A stretch of 64,000 bases of DNA from contig NZ_AP014637.1 in the NCBI RefSeq assembly GCF_000829415.1, forward strand, positions 248,001-312,000. Reading direction: 5' to 3'. The translations under genes were made by a program, and so were the position numbers. This DNA is from Pseudomonas sp. StFLB209 (GTDB lineage: Bacteria > Pseudomonadota > Gammaproteobacteria > Pseudomonadales > Pseudomonadaceae). The notes under the pieces are model-generated. The model had not been told where the DNA came from. It did not search any database and saw only the letters and a program-made list of their open reading frames with translations. Below are positions 33,468 through 44,708 of this stretch, in pieces. How positions within the stretch are numbered: position 1 is the stretch's first letter; each line of letters opens with the position of its first letter.

Positions 33468-34367
33468 TCAAGCATCCAACTGATGCTGCTCCAGCAAAAA
33501 GTCGACAAATACCCGAACCCGCGCCGGCATCGCCTGGCCGCCGACGAACACGGCATGAATCGGCTCGACGTCGCCGGGGTTGTAGGCATCGAGCAATGGC
33601 ACCAGTTCACCGCGCTTGAGGTCTTCAGCCACGCTGAAGGTGCCGATCCGGGCGATGCCGGCACCGACTCTGGCCAGTTGCGCCAGCGCCTCACCACTGC
33701 TGCATTCAATATTGCCGGTGATCTTAAGGGCAAACGGCTGCCCGTCACGCACAAATGGCCAATCGGGTTCGGCCCGGCGAAAGTTGAAGCGCAGGCAGTT
33801 GTGTTGCAGTAAATCTTCCGGTGCTGTCGGGGTGCCGTGGCGTTGCAGGTAATCGGGGGATGCGACCACCACCTGACCGGTTTCGCCAATTCTTCGAGCG
33901 GTCAGCGGGCTGTCGGGCAAGTTGCCGAAACGTATCGCCACATCCGCCTCACCGGCGAGGATATCGACCACTTCATCGCCCAGGGTCAGGTCGACGACGA
34001 TCTGTGGATAGCGCGCACTGAACGCTGCCACCAGCGGCACGATGGCCAACCGGCCGTGCCCCAGGGCGGCGCTGACCCGCAAGCGGCCCTTCGGTACGCC
34101 CTGGGCGGCGATCGCTTCTTCGACCTCGGACATGTCGGCCAGAATCCGCCGGGCACCGCGCAGGTAGGCTTCGCCTTCGCAGGTCAGGGTCATCGCCCGG
34201 GTGGTGCGCAACAGCAAGCGGGTGCCGATGCGCTGCTCGGTACGGGCAATAATGCGGCTCACCGCTGAGGGCGTCAGCCCCAGGGTGCGTGCGGCTGCCG
34301 ACAGGCTGCCTTCTTGTGCCACGGTGGCGAACACCTGCATTTCACCGGACCGGCCATTGACGTCCAT
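33468..34367 (-). CDS. LysR-family transcriptional regulator
   Basis: A 299-residue LysR regulator. The helix-turn-helix is at about 8-65 (GEMQVFATVAQEGSLSAAARTLGLTPSAVSRII). The effector domain follows, with the GEVDIAIRFG-like motif GEADVAIRFGNLP. It belongs to the large CrgA/DmlR-like subgroup. It reads away from the MFS gene at 34464 across 96 bp that contain a GCGCT-CT-AGCGC palindrome, so it likely controls that transporter and itself. Confidence 0.9.
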   Translation of the reverse strand: MDVNGRSGEMQVFATVAQEGSLSAAARTLGLTPSAVSRIIARTEQRIGTRLLLRTTRAMTLTCEGEAYLRGARRILADMSEVEEAIAAQGVPKGRLRVSAALGHGRLAIVPLVAAFSARYPQIVVDLTLGDEVVDILAGEADVAIRFGNLPDSPLTARRIGETGQVVVASPDYLQRHGTPTAPEDLLQHNCLRFNFRRAEPDWPFVRDGQPFALKITGNIECSSGEALAQLARVGAGIARIGTFSVAEDLKRGELVPLLDAYNPGDVEPIHAVFVGGQAMPARVRVFVDFLLEQHQLDA

Positions 34368-34401
34368 TTGTGCCCCTCACGCAAAGGTGTTTGAACTCAA
34401 A

Positions 34402-34413
34402 GCGCTCTAGCGC
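34402..34413. promoter_or_regulatory. Candidate operator, LysR/MFS intergenic region
   Basis: GCGCT-CT-AGCGC is a perfect short palindrome in the 96-bp divergent promoter region. It is a possible LysR site, but it does not fit T-N11-A well. Confidence 0.35.
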
Positions 34414-34463
34414 ACTTTAAAGGTGGATCGTAGCATTTAGCGCACAGATCCAGGAGCCTTCTC

Positions 34464-35645
34464 ATGCGTATCAATCCCCCTCTTATCGCCCTCGCCATGG
34501 GTGCCTTTGGCATCGGCGTCACCGAGTTCGCCCCGATGGGCATGTTGCCTGGCATCGCGACCGACCTGGGTGTGTCGATTCCGGCCGCCGGCCTGCTGGT
34601 CAGTGCCTACGCGCTCGGCGTGCTGATCGGCGCGCCGCTGATGACCCTGACCACCGGCAGGATCCCGCGTCGCTACCTGTTGATCGGCCTGATGGCGATC
34701 TTCACCTTGGGCAACCTGATGTCGGCGCTGGCCAGCGACTACCAGAGCCTGCTCATCGCCCGGGTGGTGACCTCCCTGAACCACGGCGCGTTCTTCGGCG
34801 TTGGCTCGATTGTCGCGGCCAGTGTGGTGCCGCCAGACAAACGTGCCGGGGCGGTTGCTGCGATGTTCATGGGCCTGACCCTGGCGACCATTGGCGGCGT
34901 GCCGCTGGCCAGTTGGTTTGGTGAATTGCTCGGCTGGCGCACCGCGTTCTGGGGCATTGCCGGCCTCGGTGTGCTGGCGATGGCGGCGCTGTGGTTCGCC
35001 CTGCCGGATCTGCCGCTGGCCAAAAGTGACGGCGTGCTGGCCGAGATCCGCGTGCTGGGCCGCGCGCCGGTGCTGGCCGCACTGGCCCTGACCGTCATCG
35101 GTTCGGGGGCGATGTTCACCGTGTTCACCTACATCGCGCCGATCCTGCACAGCGAAACCCAGGCCTCGACCGCCTTTATCACGGCCATGCTGGTGCTGTT
35201 CGGGGTGGGTCTGACGCTGGGCAATATCTGGGGCGGCAAGGCTGCTGACCGCTCAGTAGACCGCACGCTGATCGTGTCACTGAGTGTGCTGATCGCCATC
35301 TTGCTGGCCTTCACCGTGTTGATGCGCTGGCCGCTGCCGGCGGCGGTCGCCATTCTGATCTGGGGCGCCGCCAGCTTTGCGCTGGTGCCACCGTTGCAGA
35401 TGCGCGTGATGGAAGCTGCCAAAGACGCGCCGAACCTTGCCTCGGCCGTAAACATCGGCGCGTTCAACCTCGGCAATGCCATCGGCGCCGCGTTGGGGGG
35501 TGCAGTGATCAATGCCGGGCTGGGTTATCCGGCGATTTCCCTGGCCGGTGCGGTGATGGCCGCGCTGGGGCTGCTGATGGTGCTGGTTCTGGCCTGGCGC
35601 TCCAGATCCGCTGCGGCGGCGCAGCATGAGGCGAACGCGGCTTGA
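34464..35645 (+). CDS. MFS efflux transporter (AraJ/DHA1 type)
   Basis: A 393-residue 12-segment DHA1-family exporter. The start region IALAMGAFGIGVTEFAPMG is typical of the AraJ/YdhP-like group, with antiporter motif C (GGVPLASWFG) in the fifth segment. CCAGGAG lies 9 bp before the ATG. It is divergent from the LysR gene at 33468, the likely regulator. Substrate range (sugars, antibiotics or arabinose-like compounds in relatives) is unknown. It meets the DUF2252 gene tail to tail with a 5-bp gap. Confidence 0.88.
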   Translation: MRINPPLIALAMGAFGIGVTEFAPMGMLPGIATDLGVSIPAAGLLVSAYALGVLIGAPLMTLTTGRIPRRYLLIGLMAIFTLGNLMSALASDYQSLLIARVVTSLNHGAFFGVGSIVAASVVPPDKRAGAVAAMFMGLTLATIGGVPLASWFGELLGWRTAFWGIAGLGVLAMAALWFALPDLPLAKSDGVLAEIRVLGRAPVLAALALTVIGSGAMFTVFTYIAPILHSETQASTAFITAMLVLFGVGLTLGNIWGGKAADRSVDRTLIVSLSVLIAILLAFTVLMRWPLPAAVAILIWGAASFALVPPLQMRVMEAAKDAPNLASAVNIGAFNLGNAIGAALGGAVINAGLGYPAISLAGAVMAALGLLMVLVLAWRSRSAAAAQHEANAA

Positions 35646-35650
35646 GCGCC

Positions 35651-36838
35651 TTAGTCATGCTCCAAAGCATAACGCCGACAATGCGCCAGATAGCCCATTT
35701 CATGCGCGCCAACCAGTTGCACCACGCTGCTCCATAACCATGACGGCGCATCCAGGCTGCGGGTACGGTTGCTTTGCAGCACATCCATCCACTCCAGCCG
35801 GGTGGCGAGGTCCATCTGCCGGGCATGCGCCTGACCGACCACCCGCGCCAGGTAACCGGCCGCCTCCATGGCCTGGCGCGAATCAAGTTGATCCAGTTCC
35901 AGTTTGAGGTCTTGGGGCAGCAGTTCACGGATGAAAAACGAATGCTCCAGCAACCGCACCGCCAACATCCGGTTACCCAGCCCCGGTGATAACTGCCGGG
36001 CACCCTCGACCACCCGTTTGCCGTTATCACGCGGCATCCCGACCCGGGCGGCACGCGGCGCAGCGGCCGCTACGGCTTGCTTGATGTCCAGCAGGCAATA
36101 ATCCACGCCATCACCGTCGTCCACACTCAGCAGCACCGCATAACGGCGCAGCCCCAACGAGCTGCAACCCTTGACCCAATAGGCGCAGTCGAGCAGTTCA
36201 ACTTCACTGGCATGGCTGCGGCCTTTAAGTGAGGTGACCAAGGCGTGGATTTCAGGGGTCACGCACAGCAGCTCAATGGCTTGACGCTCGGCTTTGCTGA
36301 GTTTCCAGAAATGCTTGCCCAATGGCAGGGTCAAGCGCGCGCCCTCGATGCGCTCTTTGGCCAGATGCTTCCAGGTACGCTGCACGGCGCTGCGCATACC
36401 GGCCTTGACCTGCGCCGGGCGTGGCGGCTCGCGCTCCAGGCTGGTTTCAAAGGCCAGTTCGTAGCCACGGACCATTTCTTCGAGCATCCGCGCGGTGGTC
36501 ACCCCCGGCAGGTCGGAGCCACGTGCGGCGGTGGCAAGCGACAGTGCCAGACGCACCAGGTCATGCACAGGGTTGCCGACCACGGCCTGGTCCAGGTCGC
36601 GGATATGCACATCGATGCCACCCTTCAGATCACCAGTCGGCCCCAGATTACCGGCATGGCAATCCCCGCAGATCCATACCGCCGGGCCGCTGGGCAGACG
36701 CCGCCCCGGCTGGCTATGCAGCCACTCGTAAAAATGCACGGTGCTGCCCCGCACGAAGGCATGGGCAGAGCGGGCCATTTTCAGGTTACGCAGTTGATTG
36801 AGGTGCGGCAGACGATCAGCGGGTCTGGGTGTTTTCAT
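35651..36838 (-). CDS. DUF2252 family protein
   Basis: A 395-residue protein of the kinase-like DUF2252 family. The phosphotransfer-like core is recognisable as VWICGDCHAGNLGP and VHIRDLDQAVVGNP, the equivalents of the kinase HxD and DxD regions, and the N-terminal KMARSAHAFVRG is typical. Members are often found in stress or desiccation contexts, but the substrate is unknown. The gene appears alone. About 105 bp of low-GC sequence separates it from the MFS gene on its other side. Confidence 0.85.
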   Translation of the reverse strand: MKTPRPADRLPHLNQLRNLKMARSAHAFVRGSTVHFYEWLHSQPGRRLPSGPAVWICGDCHAGNLGPTGDLKGGIDVHIRDLDQAVVGNPVHDLVRLALSLATAARGSDLPGVTTARMLEEMVRGYELAFETSLEREPPRPAQVKAGMRSAVQRTWKHLAKERIEGARLTLPLGKHFWKLSKAERQAIELLCVTPEIHALVTSLKGRSHASEVELLDCAYWVKGCSSLGLRRYAVLLSVDDGDGVDYCLLDIKQAVAAAAPRAARVGMPRDNGKRVVEGARQLSPGLGNRMLAVRLLEHSFFIRELLPQDLKLELDQLDSRQAMEAAGYLARVVGQAHARQMDLATRLEWMDVLQSNRTRSLDAPSWLWSSVVQLVGAHEMGYLAHCRRYALEHD

Positions 36839-36943
36839 GCAGGGCTGGCTAGTAATGGCTATGCGCTATTGACCACAGTAGCGTCACAGTTGTTTCAAAG
36901 TATTTCACAAAACAAATCTTTCACTCCCCGCGTCACGTGACGA

Positions 36944-38158
36944 TCACGGCTCGACACAGCGCCTGTTCAAGCCGAACAACAACAGCGCGATCAGGCAAGC
37001 AGTGGCCTGGATCGCCCCCAAAGTAACCACCGGGGCAAATTCCAGCACCGACCCCAGCCAGGTCGTAAAGGCCGCCGCCGTCATGGTCAGAAAGCCCAGC
37101 AGTGCAGAAGCCAGGCCGGCCTGTTTGCCAAACGGGCTCAGGGTAAGCGCGGTGCCCAATGGATTGGCCAGGCCCATGCCCCACAGGAAGATCACCATCG
37201 ACAGTGAATACCAGCCCAGCCCCGGATCCCTCGGGCCAAGCCACAGCAGGCATCCGGCCAATAACGCTGTGGCCAGCCCCGAGGCGGTAATGGTGCGGCT
37301 GCCAAAGCGCCCGGCCAGCCGTGGCGCAGCCAGGCCGGCGGCGAAGACGACAAATACCGTGGCCGCGAAATACAACCCGGTCTGTAGCGAGGACAAGCCC
37401 ATGCCGTCCATCAAAATTGCCGGGGAGGCGCCGAAGCTGGCGAACAGGCCGCTCATCAACAGGCTCATCGCGGCCGCCGGCAAGATAAACGCAGGGTTAC
37501 CAAGCAACCCGCCGTAGGCGCCCAGCACCTGGGCCGCTGGCAACGCCACACGGCGCTGCACCGGCAGTGTTTCGCCAAGACCGCGTGCATAGCTGAGCGC
37601 GATGATCAGCGCGGCGATGCCGACCATGATAAAGATCGTCCGCCAGCCCAGCGTGTTGCTCAGCAGGCTGCCGAGCAACGGCGAAAAACCGGGAGCGGTC
37701 GCGGTGGCGATCATGGTCAGCGACAACGCCCGGGCCAGGGTCTCGCCCTCGAACAGGTCGCGGGCGATGGCTCGTGCCAGCACTGCGGCGGCGCACGCTC
37801 CGAGGGCCTGAATCACCCGCCCGGCAATCAGCACGTCAAACGAGCCGGCCAGGCCGGCAACCAGCGTGCCGACCACAAACAACGCCAGACCACCGAGCAC
37901 CAGAGGCAGGCGGCCAAACCGATCGGCCAGTGGCCCGACCAGCAACTGCGCCAGCGCAAAGGTGATGAAGAAGCTCGACAAGGTCAGGCCCAGCTCTCGT
38001 GCAGAGACGCCCAGCTCCTGGCCAATCTGCGCAAAGGCCGGGAGGATGATATTGGTCGACAGCACGCTGATGGCCGACAAGCCGGCCAGCAAGGCCACGA
38101 CTTTACCGTTTAGCGCAGGCCCCTGCTGCACCGCCGCAACCTCGCTTTGCGTTTTCAT
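36944..38158 (-). CDS. Bcr/CflA-family MFS drug exporter
   Basis: A 404-residue 12-segment multidrug exporter. It shows motif A (GPLADRFGRLPLVL) and the DHA1 fifth-segment region (TAPGFSPLLGSLLSNTLGWR) of the Bcr/CmlA group, whose members export bicyclomycin, chloramphenicol or sulfonamides. The ATG at 38158 overlaps the stop codon of the ketosynthase gene by 4 bp (ATGA), so translation is coupled. It is the last gene of the TetR-RND operon, and a second drug exporter here suggests a shared protective role. Confidence 0.88.
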   Translation of the reverse strand: MKTQSEVAAVQQGPALNGKVVALLAGLSAISVLSTNIILPAFAQIGQELGVSARELGLTLSSFFITFALAQLLVGPLADRFGRLPLVLGGLALFVVGTLVAGLAGSFDVLIAGRVIQALGACAAAVLARAIARDLFEGETLARALSLTMIATATAPGFSPLLGSLLSNTLGWRTIFIMVGIAALIIALSYARGLGETLPVQRRVALPAAQVLGAYGGLLGNPAFILPAAAMSLLMSGLFASFGASPAILMDGMGLSSLQTGLYFAATVFVVFAAGLAAPRLAGRFGSRTITASGLATALLAGCLLWLGPRDPGLGWYSLSMVIFLWGMGLANPLGTALTLSPFGKQAGLASALLGFLTMTAAAFTTWLGSVLEFAPVVTLGAIQATACLIALLLFGLNRRCVEP

Positions 38159-39471
38159 GACTGAGCCTGCCAATGGCGAAACAGCACACTGGCATTGACC
38201 CCGCCAAAGCCAAAGCCATTTGACAATGCATGGGTCAACGCCATCGGCCGGGCGTGACAGGCGACCACATCAAGGCCGGTGGCGGCGTCATCAGGGTGGT
38301 CGAGGTTAAGGGTCGGCGGGACGATCTGGTCACGCAACGCCAGCACCGTGAAGATCGCCTCGATACCGCCGGCAGCGCCCAGCAAGTGGCCGGTGGCGGA
38401 CTTGGTGGAACTGATCGCCACCTTGGAATCGGTGCCGAACAGCGCCCGAATCGCCGCCAGTTCGCCCTTGTCGCCGACCGGTGTCGAGGTCGCATGGGCA
38501 TTAATGTGCTGCACCTCGTCGACGCTCACCCCGGCCTGTTGCAGCGCTTGCTGCATGGCGCGCCACGCCCCGCTGCCATCTTCAGGGCCGGCGGTCAGAT
38601 GCCAGGCGTCAGCGCTGGTGCCGTAACCCACCAGCTCGGCCAAGGGCGTAGCACCACGGGCCAGGGCATGTTCCAGCGACTCGATGACCAGCAACCCCGC
38701 GCCCTCGGCCATGACGAAACCGTCACGCGCCTGGTCGAACGGCCGTGATGCGCGCCGGGCATCTTCGGCAGGCGCGGTAGACAACGCCCGCGCCGCAGCA
38801 AAACAGCCGAGGGTGACCCGATCAATCGCCGCCTCGGTGCCGCCACATATCGCGATATCAGCTTCGCCGCTGCGGATCAGCCGTGCCGCGTCACCGATGG
38901 CCTGCACCCCCGCCGCACAGGCGGTGACCGGCGCGCCCAGCGGTCCTTTGAAACCATGGCGGATAGACACATGCCCGGCGGCCATATTGGCGAGAAACGA
39001 CGGCGCGGTGAACGGTGACAACCGTTTTGGCCCGCGGCCATCGGTGGTGCGCACCGCCTCGGCCATGGCCCCGAAGCCGCCTACGCCCGAGGCGATGATG
39101 GTGGCGGTGCGTTGCTGCTGCGCTTCGCTGACCGGGTGCCAGTCGGCCTGCTCCAGTGCCTCATGGGCCGCGATCAGGGCGAACTCGATAAAGCGGTCCA
39201 TCTTCTTGCGTTCTTTGGCCGGGATCACCTGCTCGGGCTGATAGCCGCCCAGGGGGTCTTGCGCAAGGCTCGGCACCTGACCGCCAACCGCGACCCCGGT
39301 GCCGGCAGTAATCTCATCCGCCAGCTTGTCGATACCCGACTGGCCTTCGAGCAGCCGTTGCCAGACCCGCTCTACCCCGCAGCCAAGCGGGCCGACGATG
39401 CCGGTGCCGGTGACCACGATACGTTTGCCACTCTGAGAATGGGTCATGGGTGTCGCTGCTGAATGTGTCAT
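38155..39471 (-). CDS. FabF-like beta-ketoacyl-ACP synthase, operon-borne
   Basis: A 438-residue condensing enzyme of fatty-acid synthesis. The catalytic set is complete: Cys185 (VTACAAGVQ), His326 (NAHATSTPVGD), Lys357 and His362 (STKSATGHLLGAAGG), as in E. coli FabF (C163, H303, K335, H340). No fabG, acpP or fabD lies nearby, so this is not the housekeeping copy. It lies 16 bp after the RND pump gene and overlaps the MFS gene. Extra KAS enzymes linked to exporters can serve as drug-insensitive targets for thiolactomycin, cerulenin or platensimycin; that role is inferred here. The start could also be at 39447. Confidence 0.88.
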   Translation of the reverse strand: MTHSAATPMTHSQSGKRIVVTGTGIVGPLGCGVERVWQRLLEGQSGIDKLADEITAGTGVAVGGQVPSLAQDPLGGYQPEQVIPAKERKKMDRFIEFALIAAHEALEQADWHPVSEAQQQRTATIIASGVGGFGAMAEAVRTTDGRGPKRLSPFTAPSFLANMAAGHVSIRHGFKGPLGAPVTACAAGVQAIGDAARLIRSGEADIAICGGTEAAIDRVTLGCFAAARALSTAPAEDARRASRPFDQARDGFVMAEGAGLLVIESLEHALARGATPLAELVGYGTSADAWHLTAGPEDGSGAWRAMQQALQQAGVSVDEVQHINAHATSTPVGDKGELAAIRALFGTDSKVAISSTKSATGHLLGAAGGIEAIFTVLALRDQIVPPTLNLDHPDDAATGLDVVACHARPMALTHALSNGFGFGGVNASVLFRHWQAQS

Positions 39472-39487
39472 CTAGGTTGCCCCCGGT

Positions 39488-42400
39488 TCAGGTAGTGAGT
39501 TGAGTCTTGCTGCGAGGAGAGTGAATCTTGAAAGCGATCGCATACATCGCCGGGAGAAACACCAGGGTCATCAGCGTACCGACCAGCGTGCCGCCGATCA
39601 GGGTGTAGGCCAGCGTGCCCCAGAACACCGACTGGGTCAGTGGCACAAAAGCCAGGATCGCGGCCAGCGCCGTCAGCAACACCGGTCGGGCGCGCTGCAC
39701 GGTGGCCTCGACCACCGAATTGAACGGGTCGAGACCTTCCTGTTGGTTGTGATGGATCTGGCCGATCAGGATCAAGGTGTTGCGCATCAGGATGCCTGAG
39801 AGGGCGATCAGCCCGACCAGTGCGTTGATCCCGAATGGCTGCTGAAACAGCAGCAGGGTCGGCACCACACCGATCAGGCCCAGCGGCGCGGTAAGAAACA
39901 CCATGACCATCGCCGCCATCGAGCGCACCTGAACAATGATGATCAGCAAGGTCAGGGCGAGCATGATCGGCAGCAGCGGCGCGATGGCCTTGCTGGCCTT
40001 GAGCGACTCTTCGATGGAACCGGCCATTTCGATCCGGTAGCCCGGCGGCAGAGTCGCGATGACCGGCTGCAGGTCGTTCCAGATCAGCGCCGAGACATCC
40101 GGCGGTTGCAGACCCTCGGCAATGTCGCCGCGCACGGTAATGGTCGGGGTGCGGTCACGGCGGCGCAGCACGGGCTCTTCCATGCGCACCTCGACCTCGC
40201 CGACCTGCGACAGCGCAATGCGCTGGCCGGCCGCACCGACCAAGGTGAAACCGGCGATCTTCGCAGGATCGAGGCGGATATCACCGGCGGCCCGCGCCAA
40301 CAGTTGCACAGAGCGAATGTCTTCGCGCACCGCGCTGACCGCCACCCCGGACAACAGAAACTGCAGTTGTTGGGCAACGCTACTGGAGGTCAGGCCGAAT
40401 GCTTGCAGGCGATCCTGATCCAGCGCGAAATGCAGGGTCGGCACCCGCGCGCCCCAGTCGCTGTTGACGGTTCTCATCATCGGGCTGGCCTGCAGCACGC
40501 CCTGCACCTGAGTGGCGATCAGGCGCAGTTGCTGCGGGTCAGGCCCCATCACCCGATAAGCGACCGGGAACGGCGAGTACGGACCGAACACCAGTTGCGT
40601 GACCCGCACCCGCGCCTGCGGCGCCAGACCGTCGGCCACTGCGGCACGCAGGCGCTGCTTGAGCGCATCACGCGCAGCCTGGCTGTCGGTCAGCACCACA
40701 AGCTTGGCAAAGGACGGGTCAGGCAGTTCCGGGGCCATCGCCAAATAGAAACGCGGCGGTCCCTGGCCGACATAGGTGGTGACGATCTGCGCCTCTTGCT
40801 GCTCGCGCAGCCACGACTCGACCTTGATCGCGGTGGCATGGGTCTGTTCGATGGAAGTGCCGTACGGCATCTGTACCTCAACCAGCACCTCGGGGCGGTC
40901 GGAGGTCGGGAAGAACTGCTTTTTCACCAGCCCCATACCCAGCAGCGCAACGATGAACGCAACGATCACCGCCCCCGCGACCGACCATTTACCTGCGATG
41001 ACCCTGCTCAGCAGCCGACGAAAACGGTTGTAGTGGCGGGTGTCATAGATGGCCGCATGACCGCCGGCAACCTGTTTGATCTCCGGCAGCAGCTTGACAC
41101 CCAGATACGGCGTGAAGGCCACCGCGACCAGCCAGGACGCGATCAGGCCGATGCCCACGATCCAGAACATGTTGCTGGTGTATTCACCGGCCGTGGAGTG
41201 AGCAAAACCGTTGGGCATGAAGCCGATGGCGGTGACCAGCGTGCCGGACAGCATCGGCGCTGCGGTATGGCTCCAGGCGTAGGCCGAGGCCTTGAGACGG
41301 TCATAGCCCTCCTCCATTTTCACGACCATCATCTCGATGGCGATGATCGCGTCGTCGACCAGCAAACCCAGCGCCAGAATCAGCGAGCCCAGGGTAATGC
41401 GGTCAAAGTTCTTGCCCGTGGCAGCCATGACCACGAACACCACCGCCAGGGTCAAAGGCACAGCTGCCGCGACCACCACGCCAACGCGCCAGCCCATGCT
41501 GATAAAGCAGACCAGCATGACCACCAGCAAGGCGACCACGAACTTGACCATGAACTCGTTGACCGACGAGCTGATGTTCACCGACTGATCAGTGACCTTG
41601 GCCAGGGTCATGCCCAGTGGCATAGCGGCGTTGATCTGCGCCGTTTCCGCGTCCAGCGCCTTGCCAAGGTCCAGCCCGTTCCAGCCATCACGCATCACGA
41701 TACCGAGCAACAACGCCGGCTCGCCGCCGTTACGGACCAGCAATGTCGCGGGGTCTTCGTAACCCCGTTCAACCGTCGCCACATCGGACAACTTCAAGGT
41801 CCGCCCGTTGACCACCACTGGCGTGCTGCGAATGGTCTCCAGCTTGTCGAACGCCCCCTCCAGACGCACGATCACCTGCGGCCCGCCGGTTTCGATCGAG
41901 CCGGCGGGGGTCAGCGCATTCTGGTTATTGAGCGCCGCAAAGATCGCCTGCGGCGCAATACCCAGCGTGGCCAGCCGCTCATGGGAAAACGACACGAAAA
42001 TGCGCTCGGCCTGCTCACCGATGATGTTGACCTTCTTCACGCCAGGGACGTGCAACAGCCGCTGGCGCAGTGCCTCGGCATCACGCACAAGCTGGCGCGG
42101 CGGCTCACCTTTGGCTTTCAGGGCGAACAACGCGAACGTCACGTCAGCAAACTCGTCGTTGATCATCGGACCGATGACACCTGCCGGCAGATTTCGCGCC
42201 TCGTCGCCCAGCTTCTTGCGCGCCTGATAAAACTCTTCCTGGACTTGCCCGGGAGGGGTGCTGTCGAGTAGCGAGACCATGGTGAACGCCAGCCCTGCAC
42301 GGGTGTAGGTTTCACTGCGGTCGTACCACTTGAGCTCCTGCATGCGCTTTTCCAGCGGCTCGGCCACCAGATCCTGCATCTGCTGCGCCGTCGCGCCGGG

Positions 42401-42568
42401 CCAGGCACTGATGATGGTCAGTTGCTTTACGGTAAAGGGCGGATCCTCGGCACGCCCCAACTGCAAGAACGCGAGAATTCCGGCCCCGGCAATCAGCACG
42501 ATGACGAACAGGGTGACCGCGCGCTCGCGCACCGCCAAAGCAGACAGATTGAAACGCCCTGCGCTCAT
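39488..42568 (-). CDS. RND-family inner-membrane efflux pump
   Basis: A 1026-residue proton-driven exporter with the 12-segment, two-fold repeat layout of the AcrB/MexB superfamily. The paired proton-relay acidic residues in TM4 are present (ILALGLLVDDAIIAIEMM). Porter-domain motifs appear in both halves, and the final segments read RPVLLTALAAILAFVPL. No outer-membrane channel gene is in the operon, so it must borrow TolC/OprM. The start overlaps the adaptor gene by 4 bp. The closest subgroup looks like MexK/VexF-type, but substrate assignment is not safe. Confidence 0.9.
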   Translation of the reverse strand: MSAGRFNLSALAVRERAVTLFVIVLIAGAGILAFLQLGRAEDPPFTVKQLTIISAWPGATAQQMQDLVAEPLEKRMQELKWYDRSETYTRAGLAFTMVSLLDSTPPGQVQEEFYQARKKLGDEARNLPAGVIGPMINDEFADVTFALFALKAKGEPPRQLVRDAEALRQRLLHVPGVKKVNIIGEQAERIFVSFSHERLATLGIAPQAIFAALNNQNALTPAGSIETGGPQVIVRLEGAFDKLETIRSTPVVVNGRTLKLSDVATVERGYEDPATLLVRNGGEPALLLGIVMRDGWNGLDLGKALDAETAQINAAMPLGMTLAKVTDQSVNISSSVNEFMVKFVVALLVVMLVCFISMGWRVGVVVAAAVPLTLAVVFVVMAATGKNFDRITLGSLILALGLLVDDAIIAIEMMVVKMEEGYDRLKASAYAWSHTAAPMLSGTLVTAIGFMPNGFAHSTAGEYTSNMFWIVGIGLIASWLVAVAFTPYLGVKLLPEIKQVAGGHAAIYDTRHYNRFRRLLSRVIAGKWSVAGAVIVAFIVALLGMGLVKKQFFPTSDRPEVLVEVQMPYGTSIEQTHATAIKVESWLREQQEAQIVTTYVGQGPPRFYLAMAPELPDPSFAKLVVLTDSQAARDALKQRLRAAVADGLAPQARVRVTQLVFGPYSPFPVAYRVMGPDPQQLRLIATQVQGVLQASPMMRTVNSDWGARVPTLHFALDQDRLQAFGLTSSSVAQQLQFLLSGVAVSAVREDIRSVQLLARAAGDIRLDPAKIAGFTLVGAAGQRIALSQVGEVEVRMEEPVLRRRDRTPTITVRGDIAEGLQPPDVSALIWNDLQPVIATLPPGYRIEMAGSIEESLKASKAIAPLLPIMLALTLLIIIVQVRSMAAMVMVFLTAPLGLIGVVPTLLLFQQPFGINALVGLIALSGILMRNTLILIGQIHHNQQEGLDPFNSVVEATVQRARPVLLTALAAILAFVPLTQSVFWGTLAYTLIGGTLVGTLMTLVFLPAMYAIAFKIHSPRSKTQLTT

Positions 42569-43671
42569 GGCTGGCTCCCGGCAACCCGGTTGGCGTCGAG
42601 CGACTCACGCCGGACCGACTCACCGTCATGCAGCAGGTGCGCACCCAACGCCACGACCTGCTCTCCCACCGCGAGCTGGCCGACGACACGCGCCGTGTCG
42701 TCGCCAACAGCCAGCACCTGCACGTTACGCCAGGCCACCTTGGTCGGCTCACCGGCAATCAGCCAAACGCCGGGACCACTGCCGGGATCGTAAAGGGCCG
42801 CAATCGGCACCTGCACTGCGCCGCTGCCGGGCGAGTCCTGGGCGATATCGAGTGTGACGGTCGCCCCGAGCGGCGCCTGGGCCAGCGCGCCCTGCAGCAC
42901 ATAGCGGGCTTCGAAGGTACGGGTGGTGGCATCGGCCGCCGCAGACAGCAGCCGCAGGGTTGCAGGCAGCGCCGGGTCACGGCTGCCGTACAGCGACGCC
43001 TGCGCCGTCGAGCCGGTGGCCGGGCGCAGCGTCTCGGGCAAATAGACAATCGCCTCACGTTGCCCGGCCCGTGCCAGCCGGACCACCGTTTGCCCGGCGC
43101 TGACCACCTGCCCCGGTTCGGCCAGAGTCTCGACCACCACGCCGTCAGCGTCAGCCAGCAGCACCGCGTAGCTGGTTGCATTACGCGCCACATCGGCCTG
43201 GGCTTGCGCGGCACTGAGCTGTGCCCGAGCCGCGTCGGCAGCCGCCTTGCTCTGGTCGTAAGTGGATGCCGAAACGGCGCCTGCGGCAACCAGCCGGCGA
43301 TAGCGCACCTCGTCCTGGGCCGTCTGCCTGGCAAGTGCGCTGGCCGAGGCGACCGCTTCGAGCTGCGCTCGCGCCTGGAGCTGGAGATCCACAGGATCAA
43401 GGCGCAGCAGCGGCTGACCACGCTTGACCGTTTGCCCGGTATCGACCAGCCGCTCCAGCACCTTGCCTGACACACGAAAACCCAGGTCACTCTGGGTACG
43501 TGCGACCACCACACCGCTGAACGAGCGATTTGTCTCAACGGCGCGCGTCACCGTTGCAGCCCGGACCAGCGGCGGCTGGGTACGCGGATCGTCGCTGACC
43601 GCTGGATCGCCACACGCCGTCAACAGGACGGGCAGCACGCAACCGACAAGCAGGAGAGATTTGAGGCGCAT
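42565..43671 (-). CDS. RND periplasmic adaptor lipoprotein
   Basis: A 368-residue membrane-fusion protein that joins an RND pump to an outer-membrane channel. Residues 1-20 form a lipoprotein signal with lipobox LTAC (Cys20). The lipoyl half-motifs (SGKVLERLVDTGQTVKRGQPL and ADGVVVETLAEPGQVVSAGQ) flank a helical hairpin rich in Ala and Gln, followed by the beta-barrel. It is the first structural gene after tetR. A GTGACCA-N10-TGGTCAC palindrome lies about 50-70 bp upstream of its start. Confidence 0.9.
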   Translation of the reverse strand: MRLKSLLLVGCVLPVLLTACGDPAVSDDPRTQPPLVRAATVTRAVETNRSFSGVVVARTQSDLGFRVSGKVLERLVDTGQTVKRGQPLLRLDPVDLQLQARAQLEAVASASALARQTAQDEVRYRRLVAAGAVSASTYDQSKAAADAARAQLSAAQAQADVARNATSYAVLLADADGVVVETLAEPGQVVSAGQTVVRLARAGQREAIVYLPETLRPATGSTAQASLYGSRDPALPATLRLLSAAADATTRTFEARYVLQGALAQAPLGATVTLDIAQDSPGSGAVQVPIAALYDPGSGPGVWLIAGEPTKVAWRNVQVLAVGDDTARVVGQLAVGEQVVALGAHLLHDGESVRRESLDANRVAGSQP

Positions 43672-43716
43672 GGGATCCCTTACTCAAGAGCAATACGAGA
43701 CCCACATTCTTTTACT

Positions 43717-43742
43717 AGTGACCAATATTGTCAATGGTCACT
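43717..43742. promoter_or_regulatory. TetR-type operator upstream of the RND adaptor gene
   Basis: Perfect 8-bp arms AGTGACCA (43717-43724) and TGGTCACT (43735-43742) with a 10-bp spacer, in the 77-bp gap between tetR and the adaptor gene. An almost identical site lies upstream of tetR. Confidence 0.72.
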
Positions 43743-43748
43743 TATTAT

Positions 43749-44363
43749 TTACGGCGCCAGGCTACGCAAGATCATGGCCGGCAATTGCACGGTCGCTTCA
43801 CCGGTAGCGTCGAGGTTGTATTGCAGTTGTGCAGGGTTGATGTAGGGACGCATGACCAGACAGATCGCGCTGACCACATCATCCAGCGGGGTCTTGCGCT
43901 CAAATTCGCCGGCTTCGCGGCCATCAACCACGATCTGCTGGATAATTGCGCGAATTCGCGCTTCATGTTCAAGCACCGACGGCCACTGCTCACGTGATGC
44001 AACAGCAGCAATGTCGTAAAGCTTGCGGTCATGGAAAAACAGGTCGCTGCCCGCTTCGCAAAGCGTCCGGAACAGGCACCTCAAGCGCTCCGAGGCAGAC
44101 GAGGCACCGGCAGTCGCAGCCTCAATGGCCTGCATGATCATCGCCAGACGGTTGGCGCAGATCACCTGGCCGATGGCCTGCTTTGAGTCGAAAAACTTAT
44201 AGATGTAGGCCTTGGAAAAACCGATGGCCTTGGCAAGGTCCGACACCGTGGTCTTCTCATAGCCGTAATGCGCGAAATGGCGGCCTGCCGCCTCGATGAC
44301 CTGATCGCGGACACTGTGATCAAGGGGGCCGCGGGTAGGCGCTGGGGGGGTATTTTCATTCAT
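43749..44363 (-). CDS. TetR-family repressor of the RND/KAS/MFS operon
   Basis: A 204-residue repressor. Residues 15-65 form the TetR helix-turn-helix (VIEAAGRHFAHYGYEKTTVSDLAKAIGFSKAYIYKFF), followed by a mostly helical ligand domain. It precedes the adaptor gene by 77 bp on the same strand. The same palindrome GTGACCR-N10-TGGTCAC lies upstream of both genes, so TetR autoregulation plus control of the pump operon is predicted. The inducing ligand is unknown. Confidence 0.9.
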   Translation of the reverse strand: MNENTPPAPTRGPLDHSVRDQVIEAAGRHFAHYGYEKTTVSDLAKAIGFSKAYIYKFFDSKQAIGQVICANRLAMIMQAIEAATAGASSASERLRCLFRTLCEAGSDLFFHDRKLYDIAAVASREQWPSVLEHEARIRAIIQQIVVDGREAGEFERKTPLDDVVSAICLVMRPYINPAQLQYNLDATGEATVQLPAMILRSLAP

Positions 44364-44708
44364 GTGCGCAGCTTGACTCCATGATGACTCGAAAGACCGT
44401 TAGGTGACCGATCAATAATATGGTCACAATCTATCTGTGTCCAAAAAGGGCGCGAAGTTCTGTTGACCGGCAAATACTGCCCTCAATGTGACGCCCTGCA
44501 ATGGCCGCTATGGTAATGGCTATTCAGACAGGCCGGGCGCTGCGCCGGGCGATCAGAGGTTTTTCGCGCGAACGCAGGCATAATGCCTACACTTGGCTGC
44601 GGGCCAGAATCATCGACTGTTCTGGCCCGCAACTGCCATGAGCCGGTGCATCGGAATGGCTGCACTGACACGTTAATCCGTAGTTACGACTGACAAGGCA
44701 GTGATCGT
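44364..44708. other. Intergenic region between tetR and the decayed tnpB
   Basis: 345 bp without a convincing gene. It holds the tetR operator (44404-44427) and a perfect 12-bp stem, TGCGGGCCAGAA (44598-44609) / TTCTGGCCCGCA (44620-44631), with a 10-nt loop. That stem could be a terminator remnant, though no T run follows. Confidence 0.5.
44404..44427. promoter_or_regulatory. TetR-type operator upstream of tetR
   Basis: GTGACCG at 44404 and TGGTCAC ending 44427 with a 10-bp spacer, 40 bp upstream of the tetR start. It shares half-sites and spacing with the site at 43717-43742. Confidence 0.68.

What the first reader, a model, noticed from the sequence alone, without database searches (positions are those of the whole stretch)
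36944..44363. Five-gene TetR operon joining RND and MFS exporters to a spare FabF-type ketosynthase
The genes tetR, RND adaptor, RND pump, KAS and Bcr/CflA pump are tightly spaced or overlapping (4-bp overlaps at two junctions, 16 bp at a third). The KAS has all catalytic residues yet no fatty-acid genes nearby. A drug-insensitive target plus two pumps would protect against a KAS inhibitor such as thiolactomycin, cerulenin or platensimycin. Alternatively the KAS may adjust lipids for pump function.
Basis: partly seen in the sequence, partly recalled or inferred. Interest (0 to 1): 0.72.

Follow-up and report, generated by a model that had tools for sequence, protein, structure and literature searches.

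The report
Inducible spare fatty-acid synthase with exporters
A Pseudomonas-type bacterium carries a spare copy of an essential fatty-acid-building enzyme in one operon with two export pumps, and relatives of this unit occur in other bacteria and on plasmids, which suggests an inducible way to survive a natural inhibitor of that enzyme, though no inhibitor has yet been shown.

Summary
The five-gene operon is real. Its core (TetR, adaptor, RND pump, KAS) is not new to print: Dong et al. 2021 (PMC8319022) showed in P. putida F1 that the TetR represses such an operon and that its KAS, FabF2, can replace FabB once derepressed. They called the pump unrelated; I found no KAS-inhibitor test in the main text. 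New here: (1) a 22-bp palindrome, TGAC-N14-GTCA, overlaps both promoter matches and precedes the adaptor gene in 44 of 45 loci; in three loci where KAS lies apart from the pump, a copy precedes KAS. (2) The KAS family is one clade apart from FabF1 and FabB, with changed residues around kept catalytic ones. (3) It sits beside alternative regulators and exporters: TetR with RND, HxlR with EmrAB, MFS pumps. (4) It is on plasmids (103 of 128 records hit at 60-80% identity), including multidrug-resistance plasmids and, in some rhizobia, beside a second FtsZ. (5) Pump and KAS co-occur even when unlinked. Best reading: an inducible efflux-plus-target-bypass unit against an unknown KAS inhibitor (0.55). 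Main evidence against: a 62%-identical Burkholderia relative was crystallised with platencin, so insensitivity to that class is doubtful.

The parts
43749..44363 (-). TetR/AcrR-family repressor gene (TetR-A), first gene of the operon
   Evidence: ORF; TetR_N 45.3 bits over cut-off 24, TetR_C_27 43.0 over 26.1; a TetR-A match in 38 of 45 adaptor-bearing loci
42565..43671 (-). RND periplasmic adaptor (membrane fusion protein) gene
   Evidence: TIGR01730 194.8 bits over 94.9
39488..42568 (-). RND pump gene; nearest solved relatives MexK and PDB entry 6vej (TriC by my recall)
   Evidence: ACR_tran 476.6 bits; MexK 825 bits, 6vej 739 bits, next 197 bits
38155..39471 (-). spare beta-ketoacyl-ACP synthase (KAS, PRK06333 subfamily, FabF2-like)
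   Evidence: NF004970 710.8 bits over 525 and TIGR03150 529.9 over 493.75; tree; residues
36944..38158 (-). Bcr/CflA-type MFS drug exporter gene, overlapping the KAS stop codon by 4 bp
   Evidence: TIGR00710 204.2 bits over 200.9; for the ATGA overlap
44405..44426 (.). operator 1, TGAC-N14-GTCA palindrome upstream of tetR, covering the -10 hexamer of the promoter match
43719..43740 (.). operator 2, TGAC-N14-GTCA palindrome between tetR and the adaptor, covering the -35 hexamer TTGACA
44415..44443 (-). promoter-like site before tetR (TGGACA-17-TATTAT)
   Evidence: one of 2 found in 36700-44700, mean of shuffles 1.0
43706..43734 (-). promoter-like site before the adaptor (TTGACA-17-AAGAAT)
   Evidence: the other of the 2

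Best explanation
An inducible resistance unit of the efflux-plus-target-bypass type. Without inducer the TetR sits on two operators and keeps its own promoter and the adaptor promoter off. A toxic environmental compound that blocks the housekeeping condensing enzymes FabB and FabF (or the acyl imbalance it causes) releases the TetR. The RND pump (with an outer-membrane channel, encoded beside the unit in many relatives but not within the 22 kb around this one) and the Bcr/CflA pump lower the compound, while the derepressed KAS, which can do the work of FabB and partly of FabF, keeps fatty-acid synthesis going. Shown in print for P. putida F1: repression by the TetR, cotranscription of KAS with tetR, FabB replacement by the KAS, weak FabF activity. 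Shown here: operator palindromes on both promoter matches, KAS phylogeny and changed residues, exporter and regulator swapping, plasmid carriage, co-occurrence. Inferred: that the window operon behaves like the P. putida one, the identity of the inducer, insensitivity of the KAS to it, and its transport by the pumps.
For: Spare copy beside intact FabF1 and FabB (in one search, 13 of 13 same-genus genomes with a copy of 70% or more also show a 48-49% FabF1-like and a 34-37% FabB-like protein). The KAS subfamily is one clade, 96 rows, SH-aLRT 100, own FabF1 and E. coli FabF outside. Changed residues: F111, F137 and A304 in 95 of 95, T133 and V403 in 94 of 95, G272 in 92 of 95, catalytic residues kept; the same set in 15 of 15 plasmid copies except S304 in 2. 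Exporters of several kinds in the loci of 52 of the 96 rows: RND 43, HxlR+EmrAB 6, MFS alone 3. Operator before the adaptor in 44 of 45 loci, and before KAS in three loci where KAS lies apart from the pump: L168, L013, Pantoea pPag1 L207. Plasmid carriage; a Bosea plasmid has the same five functions in another order. Pump-KAS co-occurrence: 58 of 66 pump genomes have a subfamily KAS versus 53 of 133 without the pump; leaving out the 28 genomes with the first KAS type, 30 of 38 versus 53 of 133. Print: silent, repressed, replaces FabB. The nearest solved pump is MexK; MexJK can extrude triclosan according to the abstract of PMC9323910; that triclosan acts on FabI, another fatty-acid enzyme, is mostly recall (a passage of PMC5206705, names its derivatives as FabI inhibitors).
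Against: No inhibitor has been tested in anything I read. PDB 4F32 is a platencin complex of a 62%-identical relative; 4DDO and 4F32 share one sequence with the catalytic Cys present. In P. putida F1 the fabF2 deletion made cells more, not less, resistant to ampicillin, erythromycin and carbenicillin, and deleting the pump genes did not change the fabB-deletion phenotype. MexJK overexpression did not change antibiotic susceptibility in a wild-type background (abstract). 44 of 96 KAS rows have no exporter among my reference genes in the locus. Some loci add a short-chain dehydrogenase or thioesterase, which resistance does not need. 38 of 66 pump genomes have the pump without a nearby KAS. The co-occurrence statistics are not corrected for shared ancestry.
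Confidence: 0.55

Rival explanations
1. Envelope-lipid homeostasis. The TetR senses an acyl compound, solvent or membrane stress; the KAS raises unsaturated fatty acid synthesis and the pumps remove the stressor (free fatty acids, solvents). The KAS is a lipid-tuning enzyme, not an insensitive target.
For: P. putida FabF2 restores unsaturated fatty acid synthesis, and fabA expression also rises when the repressor is lost. PMC8319022 notes that several TetR proteins regulate fatty acid synthesis. The window TetR scores weakly with a FadR model (38.5 bits, far under the cut-off 200).
Against: In P. putida F1 the gene is cryptic in the wild type. The operator pattern has no match in the 10 kb around own fabB (none of the 35 sites lies in 5528000-5538000). 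Carriage next to drug-resistance genes and a co-located second FtsZ are not what lipid tuning predicts.
Confidence: 0.25
2. Biosynthesis and export. The KAS, with a short-chain dehydrogenase and a hotdog thioesterase where present, makes a fatty-acid-derived metabolite that the pumps export.
For: SDR or thioesterase genes lie next to KAS or between pump and KAS in L020, L021, L023, L024, L026, L027, L041, L065, L178, L180, L181, L211 and L218, and an SDR is upstream of KAS in 17 of the 27 TetR-D rows. Pantoea pVag1 has a luxI/luxR-like pair next to the unit. The MexJK abstract links that pump to quorum sensing.
Against: No acyl-carrier-protein gene is annotated in the 15 plasmid stretches read. 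The one SDR scanned (L122) is below every NCBIfam cut-off shown (25 of 115 matches). The window and most RND loci have neither gene between pump and KAS. KAS stands beside a regulator with no reference exporter, SDR or thioesterase in Yersinia, Comamonas and several Pseudomonas loci.
Confidence: 0.12
3. Chance or hitch-hiking: a multidrug RND operon and a paralogous KAS joined without functional link.
For: The pump lacks a nearby KAS in 38 of 66 pump genomes of 199 (27 linked, plus G120 with KAS 3.6 kb away), and the authors of PMC8319022 called the pump unrelated.
Against: Pump-KAS neighbourhood persists in alpha- and gammaproteobacteria with about 64% pump identity but different regulators, the operator precedes KAS in loci where it lies apart from the pump, and co-occurrence holds when unlinked.
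Confidence: 0.08

Closest known systems
Pseudomonas putida F1 fabF2 operon Pput_2425-2424-2423-2422 (Dong et al. 2021, PMC8319022)
   Same: TetR gene first, two efflux-pump genes, then a FabF-type KAS; the repressor acts on its own and on the Pput_2424 promoter, matching the two palindromes here; KAS 45.7% to E. coli FabF there, 45.6% here.
   Different: The text calls fabF2 the last gene of the operon, with drug-transport genes downstream; here a Bcr/CflA gene overlaps the KAS stop codon. The paper says all such clusters contain a TetR; I find HxlR-type ones. The sequences were not aligned directly here.
MexJK / TriABC-type RND pumps of P. aeruginosa
   Same: Nearest solved pumps by sequence (825 and 739 bits, next 197). 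MexJK is regulated by MexL (section title; a TetR protein by recall).
   Different: No KAS in those operons as far as I recall; the window pump is under the NCBIfam RND_permease cut-off (395 of 1250 bits).
Target-bypass resistance genes with a spare insensitive enzyme (sul1; KAS genes of platensimycin and thiolactomycin producers, recalled)
   Same: Spare copy of an essential target, regulated or mobile, with export. sul1 lies in the same P. paraeruginosa plasmid stretch as the KAS.
   Different: No antibiotic biosynthesis cluster was noticed near the copies read, so defence against others' compounds rather than self-protection; insensitivity not shown.
Burkholderia vietnamiensis 3-oxoacyl-ACP synthase II, PDB 4DDO/4F32
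   Different: 4F32 holds platencin, so it binds that inhibitor; genomic setting not examined.

Membership tests
P. putida FabF2 operon family | gene order TetR, adaptor, RND, KAS on one strand | tested here: met
P. putida FabF2 operon family | TetR controls its own promoter and the adaptor promoter | tested here: inconclusive
   same palindrome on both promoter matches; binding not measured
P. putida FabF2 operon family | KAS can replace FabB | not testable with these tools
   shown for P. putida only
P. putida FabF2 operon family | direct sequence orthology to Pput_2422 | not tested
   the P. putida F1 sequence was not fetched; in KT2440 PP_3302 is named an RND transporter and PP_3303 a putative KAS
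FabF (TIGR03150) and subfamily PRK06333 (NF004970) | score over the curated cut-off | tested here: met
   529.9 over 493.75 and 710.8 over 525 bits
FabF (TIGR03150) and subfamily PRK06333 (NF004970) | Cys-His-His triad, Lys335, Phe400 | tested here: met
Housekeeping FabF1 | groups with own FabF1 / E. coli FabF | tested here: not met
   separate clade
Bcr/CflA MFS (TIGR00710) | score over the curated cut-off | tested here: met
   204.2 over 200.9 bits
MexK/TriC branch of RND pumps | closest to MexK and 6vej among solved pumps | tested here: met
MexK/TriC branch of RND pumps | exports triclosan or other fatty-acid-synthesis inhibitors | not testable with these tools
   no assay
Target-bypass resistance unit | spare copy beside intact housekeeping target | tested here: met
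Target-bypass resistance unit | accessory, mobile distribution | tested here: met
   28 of 199 genus genomes with the first type (75-85%, own included), 83 with the 67-74% type, 88 with neither; plasmids
Target-bypass resistance unit | spare enzyme insensitive to the inhibitor | tested here: inconclusive
   changed residues but platencin complex of a relative
Target-bypass resistance unit | induced by the inhibitor | not testable with these tools
   inducer unknown

The most novel reading that the evidence does not exclude
The KAS clade is a mobile, inducible target-replacement gene, the core of 'spare-target islands' that recombine with different regulators and exporters, and in some rhizobia and a Methylovirgula with a spare FtsZ. 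A widespread natural compound, perhaps from plants or fungi, that hits condensing enzymes (and in some settings FtsZ) selects for these islands, which have also entered multidrug-resistance plasmid regions.
Probability: 0.25. Interest if true: 0.82.

Novelty: new variant of a known kind. Interest (0 to 1): 0.6.

Why it matters
FabB and FabF are drug targets. If the unit is a bypass, environmental bacteria and plasmids already hold a ready, inducible answer to KAS inhibitors, and the inducer would point to a natural KAS inhibitor of ecological weight. It would also explain why P. putida keeps a silent, FabB-capable enzyme, for which the 2021 paper could only suggest a role. The question can be tested directly with laboratory P. 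putida mutants already made in that paper.

Tried and rejected
Biosynthetic-cluster self-resistance: no antibiotic biosynthesis cluster was noticed in the 15 annotated KAS stretches read, though L216 of Eleftheria terrae has a radical-SAM and a DegT-type aminotransferase gene near and was not followed.

KAS as the genome's only FabF: rejected. Operon unique to the strain: rejected.

The TetR-A operator as a genome-wide regulon: TGACY-N12-RGTCA occurs 35 times in the genome against 31 for the reversed-pattern control; only the two AT-rich operon sites stand out by eye, and no further regulon is claimed. In 33 loci of the second KAS type no AT-rich TGAC-N14-GTCA lies before KAS (L123 and L134 have one far downstream; L126 and L136 have one GC-rich match each whose place was not printed); they use other regulators.

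FtsZ link as a general rule: rejected; of five plasmid FtsZ stretches read without choosing by KAS, one (L224) had KAS beside it and four (L221, L222, L223, L225) did not.

Mutual exclusion of the two KAS types in the genus sample (0 shared between 28 and 83 genomes, expected 11.7) is not absolute elsewhere: Klebsiella grimontii L017 has both.

Limits. Neighbour annotation used 16 reference proteins taken from the KAS loci and the window, so other exporters nearby could be missed, and the 44 distant-FabF loci (one weak MFS match, no RND, EmrAB or HxlR match) are a limited control. Loci near contig ends are truncated; two pairs of loci (L043/L171, L016/L175) have identical KAS and count once in the tree. 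Only every second of the 44 distant FabFs went into the tree, which is a quick search with long branches. Loci found with the KAS as query cannot show pumps without KAS; the reverse search by pump was done for that, keeping the 66 genomes whose best RND match is 67% or more and dropping the group near 58-60%. The TetR search of the same genomes was not used for a count. In one search the MFS query was out of frame by my mistake; its MFS rows were not used and one search replaced them. Which residues touch thiolactomycin is from recall; only the roles of Ile108, Gly198 and Phe400 were read.

Literature: what I say is not in print rests in one open-licence library; supplements were not seen.
Full report
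What is there. Five genes lie head to tail on the - strand, 44363 to 36944: TetR, RND adaptor, RND pump, KAS, Bcr/CflA MFS pump. Two junctions overlap by 4 bp, one has a 16-bp gap, and tetR and adaptor are 77 bp apart. The host genome is 6.33 Mb in one contig; that it is a Pseudomonas is inferred from the closest named relatives of the KAS (six of the best seven, 80-84%, are Pseudomonas, the other is Klebsiella grimontii).

Already in print. Dong et al. 2021 (PMC8319022; I read the abstract with the start of the introduction, passages, and sections 4, 9, 10 and 19) described the P. putida F1 operon TetR Pput_2425, two efflux genes, fabF2. RT-PCR showed cotranscription; lacZ fusions showed that the TetR represses its own promoter and that of Pput_2424; loss of the TetR lets FabF2 replace FabB; FabF2 has weak FabF activity. 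The authors call the pump unrelated, suggest that other bacteria too may compensate defects of unsaturated fatty acid synthesis this way, and say that all such clusters contain a TetR. They tested ampicillin, erythromycin and carbenicillin, to which the fabF2 deletion became more resistant. In the main text cerulenin occurs once, in the reference list, and thiolactomycin not at all.

Control region. The window has TGACCATATTATTGATCGGTCA before tetR (44405-44426) and TGACCATTGACAATATTGGTCA between tetR and adaptor (43719-43740). A promoter scan of 36700-44700 finds two sigma-70-like sites (mean of shuffles 1.0); each overlaps one palindrome, the first at its -10, the second at its -35. TGAC-N14-GTCA lies before the adaptor in 44 of 45 adaptor-bearing loci, the window included, and before tetR in 32 of 38 loci with this TetR. 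Where the outer-membrane channel gene lies upstream of and divergent from the adaptor, the gap often holds two sites. In the whole genome the looser pattern TGACY-N12-RGTCA is near background (35 sites, control 31).

The KAS. It scores 710.8 bits with NF004970 and 529.9 with FabF TIGR03150, and is 46% identical to E. coli FabF and 37% to FabB. In a quick maximum-likelihood tree of 124 rows, 96 subfamily rows form one clade (SH-aLRT 100, stem 1.51), with own FabF1 beside E. coli FabF outside (long branches, several open forks). All 95 rows counted keep the catalytic residues, and nearly all share F111, T133, F137, A304, V403 and G272 where E. coli FabF has L, F, T, G, T and P. Of 44 distant FabFs, 9 also have A304, 4 T133 and 4 F111, and 36 keep P272. 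Ile108 and Phe400 are described as controlling access to the pocket (PMC5206705 passages); this family has V108 in 73 rows and I108 in 22. The role of position 272 in thiolactomycin binding is recalled, not read. The predicted model (mean pLDDT 91.9) matches 4DDO and 4F32 best. 4F32 is a platencin complex: the strongest single fact against insensitivity to that class.

Context of relatives. Of 96 rows, 43 are in loci with the RND pump; 6 in HxlR-EmrA-EmrB-KAS operons of Enterobacter, Kosakonia, Pantoea and Erwinia; 13 beside an HxlR regulator without EmrAB (Yersinia 4, Pseudomonas-sample genomes 6, and one each of Pantoea, Kosakonia and Klebsiella); 27 in a TetR-D group (17 with an SDR upstream of KAS, 21 with a wbpM-like gene); 3 beside a thioesterase; 4 other. 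The Bcr/CflA gene follows KAS on the same strand in 7 of the 43 RND loci (window, L011, L044, L156, L157, L158, L179). So the statement that all clusters have a TetR does not hold.

Distribution. In 199 genus genomes, 28 have a first-type copy (75-85%; own 100%), 83 a 67-74% copy, none both (expected 11.7, P 6e-8), 88 neither. The pump at 67% or more is in 66: 28 with the first KAS type (27 linked), 30 with the second type (one of them, G120, 3.6 kb away, the rest not near), 8 without. Any KAS versus pump: odds ratio 10.9, P 3e-11; leaving out first-type genomes: 5.7, P 2e-5. Shared ancestry is not corrected for. In G112 the KAS and MFS genes are on another contig than the pump, yet an operator stands about 90 bp before the matched KAS start (L168). 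L013 and the Pantoea plasmid pPag1 (L207) show TetR, operator, KAS with no pump between; in L207 another adaptor-RND pair lies about 5.6 kb downstream. In a wider class sample, 7 of 274 genomes, own included, had a match at E 1e-130.

Plasmids. KAS matches 128 of 72,556 plasmid records at E 1e-100, 103 of them at 60-80% identity; 50 of the 128 are Pantoea. I read 15 annotated KAS stretches. Pantoea vagans pVag1 has the window's five-gene order plus a divergent TolC gene (L208). P. oryzihabitans has TetR-adaptor-RND-SDR-MFS-KAS (L211). A Pantoea plasmid has an HTH gene, HlyD, DHA2 pump and KAS in a row (L217). A Bosea plasmid has the same five functions in another order (L212). Rhizobium and Agrobacterium plasmids have RND-adaptor divergent from TetR-KAS (L213, L214, L215, L219, L224; not L220, which has TetR and KAS without a pump in the stretch). 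The alphaproteobacterial pumps compared are about 64% identical to the window's; the TetRs compared are of another kind, and the six stretches scanned lack the operator. In L213, L214, L218 and L224 a 330-335-aa FtsZ with intact GGGTGTG follows KAS. In E. hormaechei pKPC_CAV1176 and a P. paraeruginosa plasmid an HxlR gene plus KAS stands beside LysR, tet(G), tetR(G) and floR, in the latter also near a class 1 integron with sul1. DNA of that unit covers most of the query in 8 plasmid records (six at 100%, two at 90%) and megablast found none in 20,395 E. coli records.

Pump. The nearest solved pumps are MexK (825, 824 bits) and 6vej (739), the next 197 bits. [quoted passage not shown] In P. putida KT2440, deletion of the RND gene PP_3302 had a minor effect on growth of a pyoverdine-secretion mutant (PMC10715066 passages).

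Interpretation. The part kept constant across settings is the KAS, partly because it was the query; regulators and exporters vary. A silent enzyme able to stand in for FabB, turned on together with pumps, and carried on mobile DNA, is what an inducible bypass would look like. The lipid-homeostasis reading remains open, and platencin-type insensitivity is unlikely to be the point. I put the bypass reading at 0.55.

Noticed in passing
L213, L214, L218, L224: A second, short FtsZ (330-335 aa, GTPase motif intact) follows the KAS gene in rhizobial and Methylovirgula plasmids with a divergent RND pump.
   Followed up: partly
L209:6487-8260 and L210:6484-8260: An HxlR regulator plus KAS unit stands next to tet(G), floR and, in L210, a class 1 integron on resistance plasmids.
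   Followed up: partly
L208:12055-13399: A luxI/luxR-like pair lies just beyond the five-gene unit on Pantoea vagans pVag1.
   Followed up: no
L017: Klebsiella grimontii carries both the RND-KAS operon and an HxlR-KAS pair within one 17-kb stretch.
   Followed up: no
window 33468-35645: A LysR-type regulator gene and a divergent MFS transporter gene lie just downstream of the operon and a DUF2252 gene (35651-36838).
   Followed up: no
L121-L132, L183-L186: The second KAS type in the genus sits in a recurring place near a wbpM-like gene, often with an SDR upstream and a convergent TetR.
   Followed up: partly
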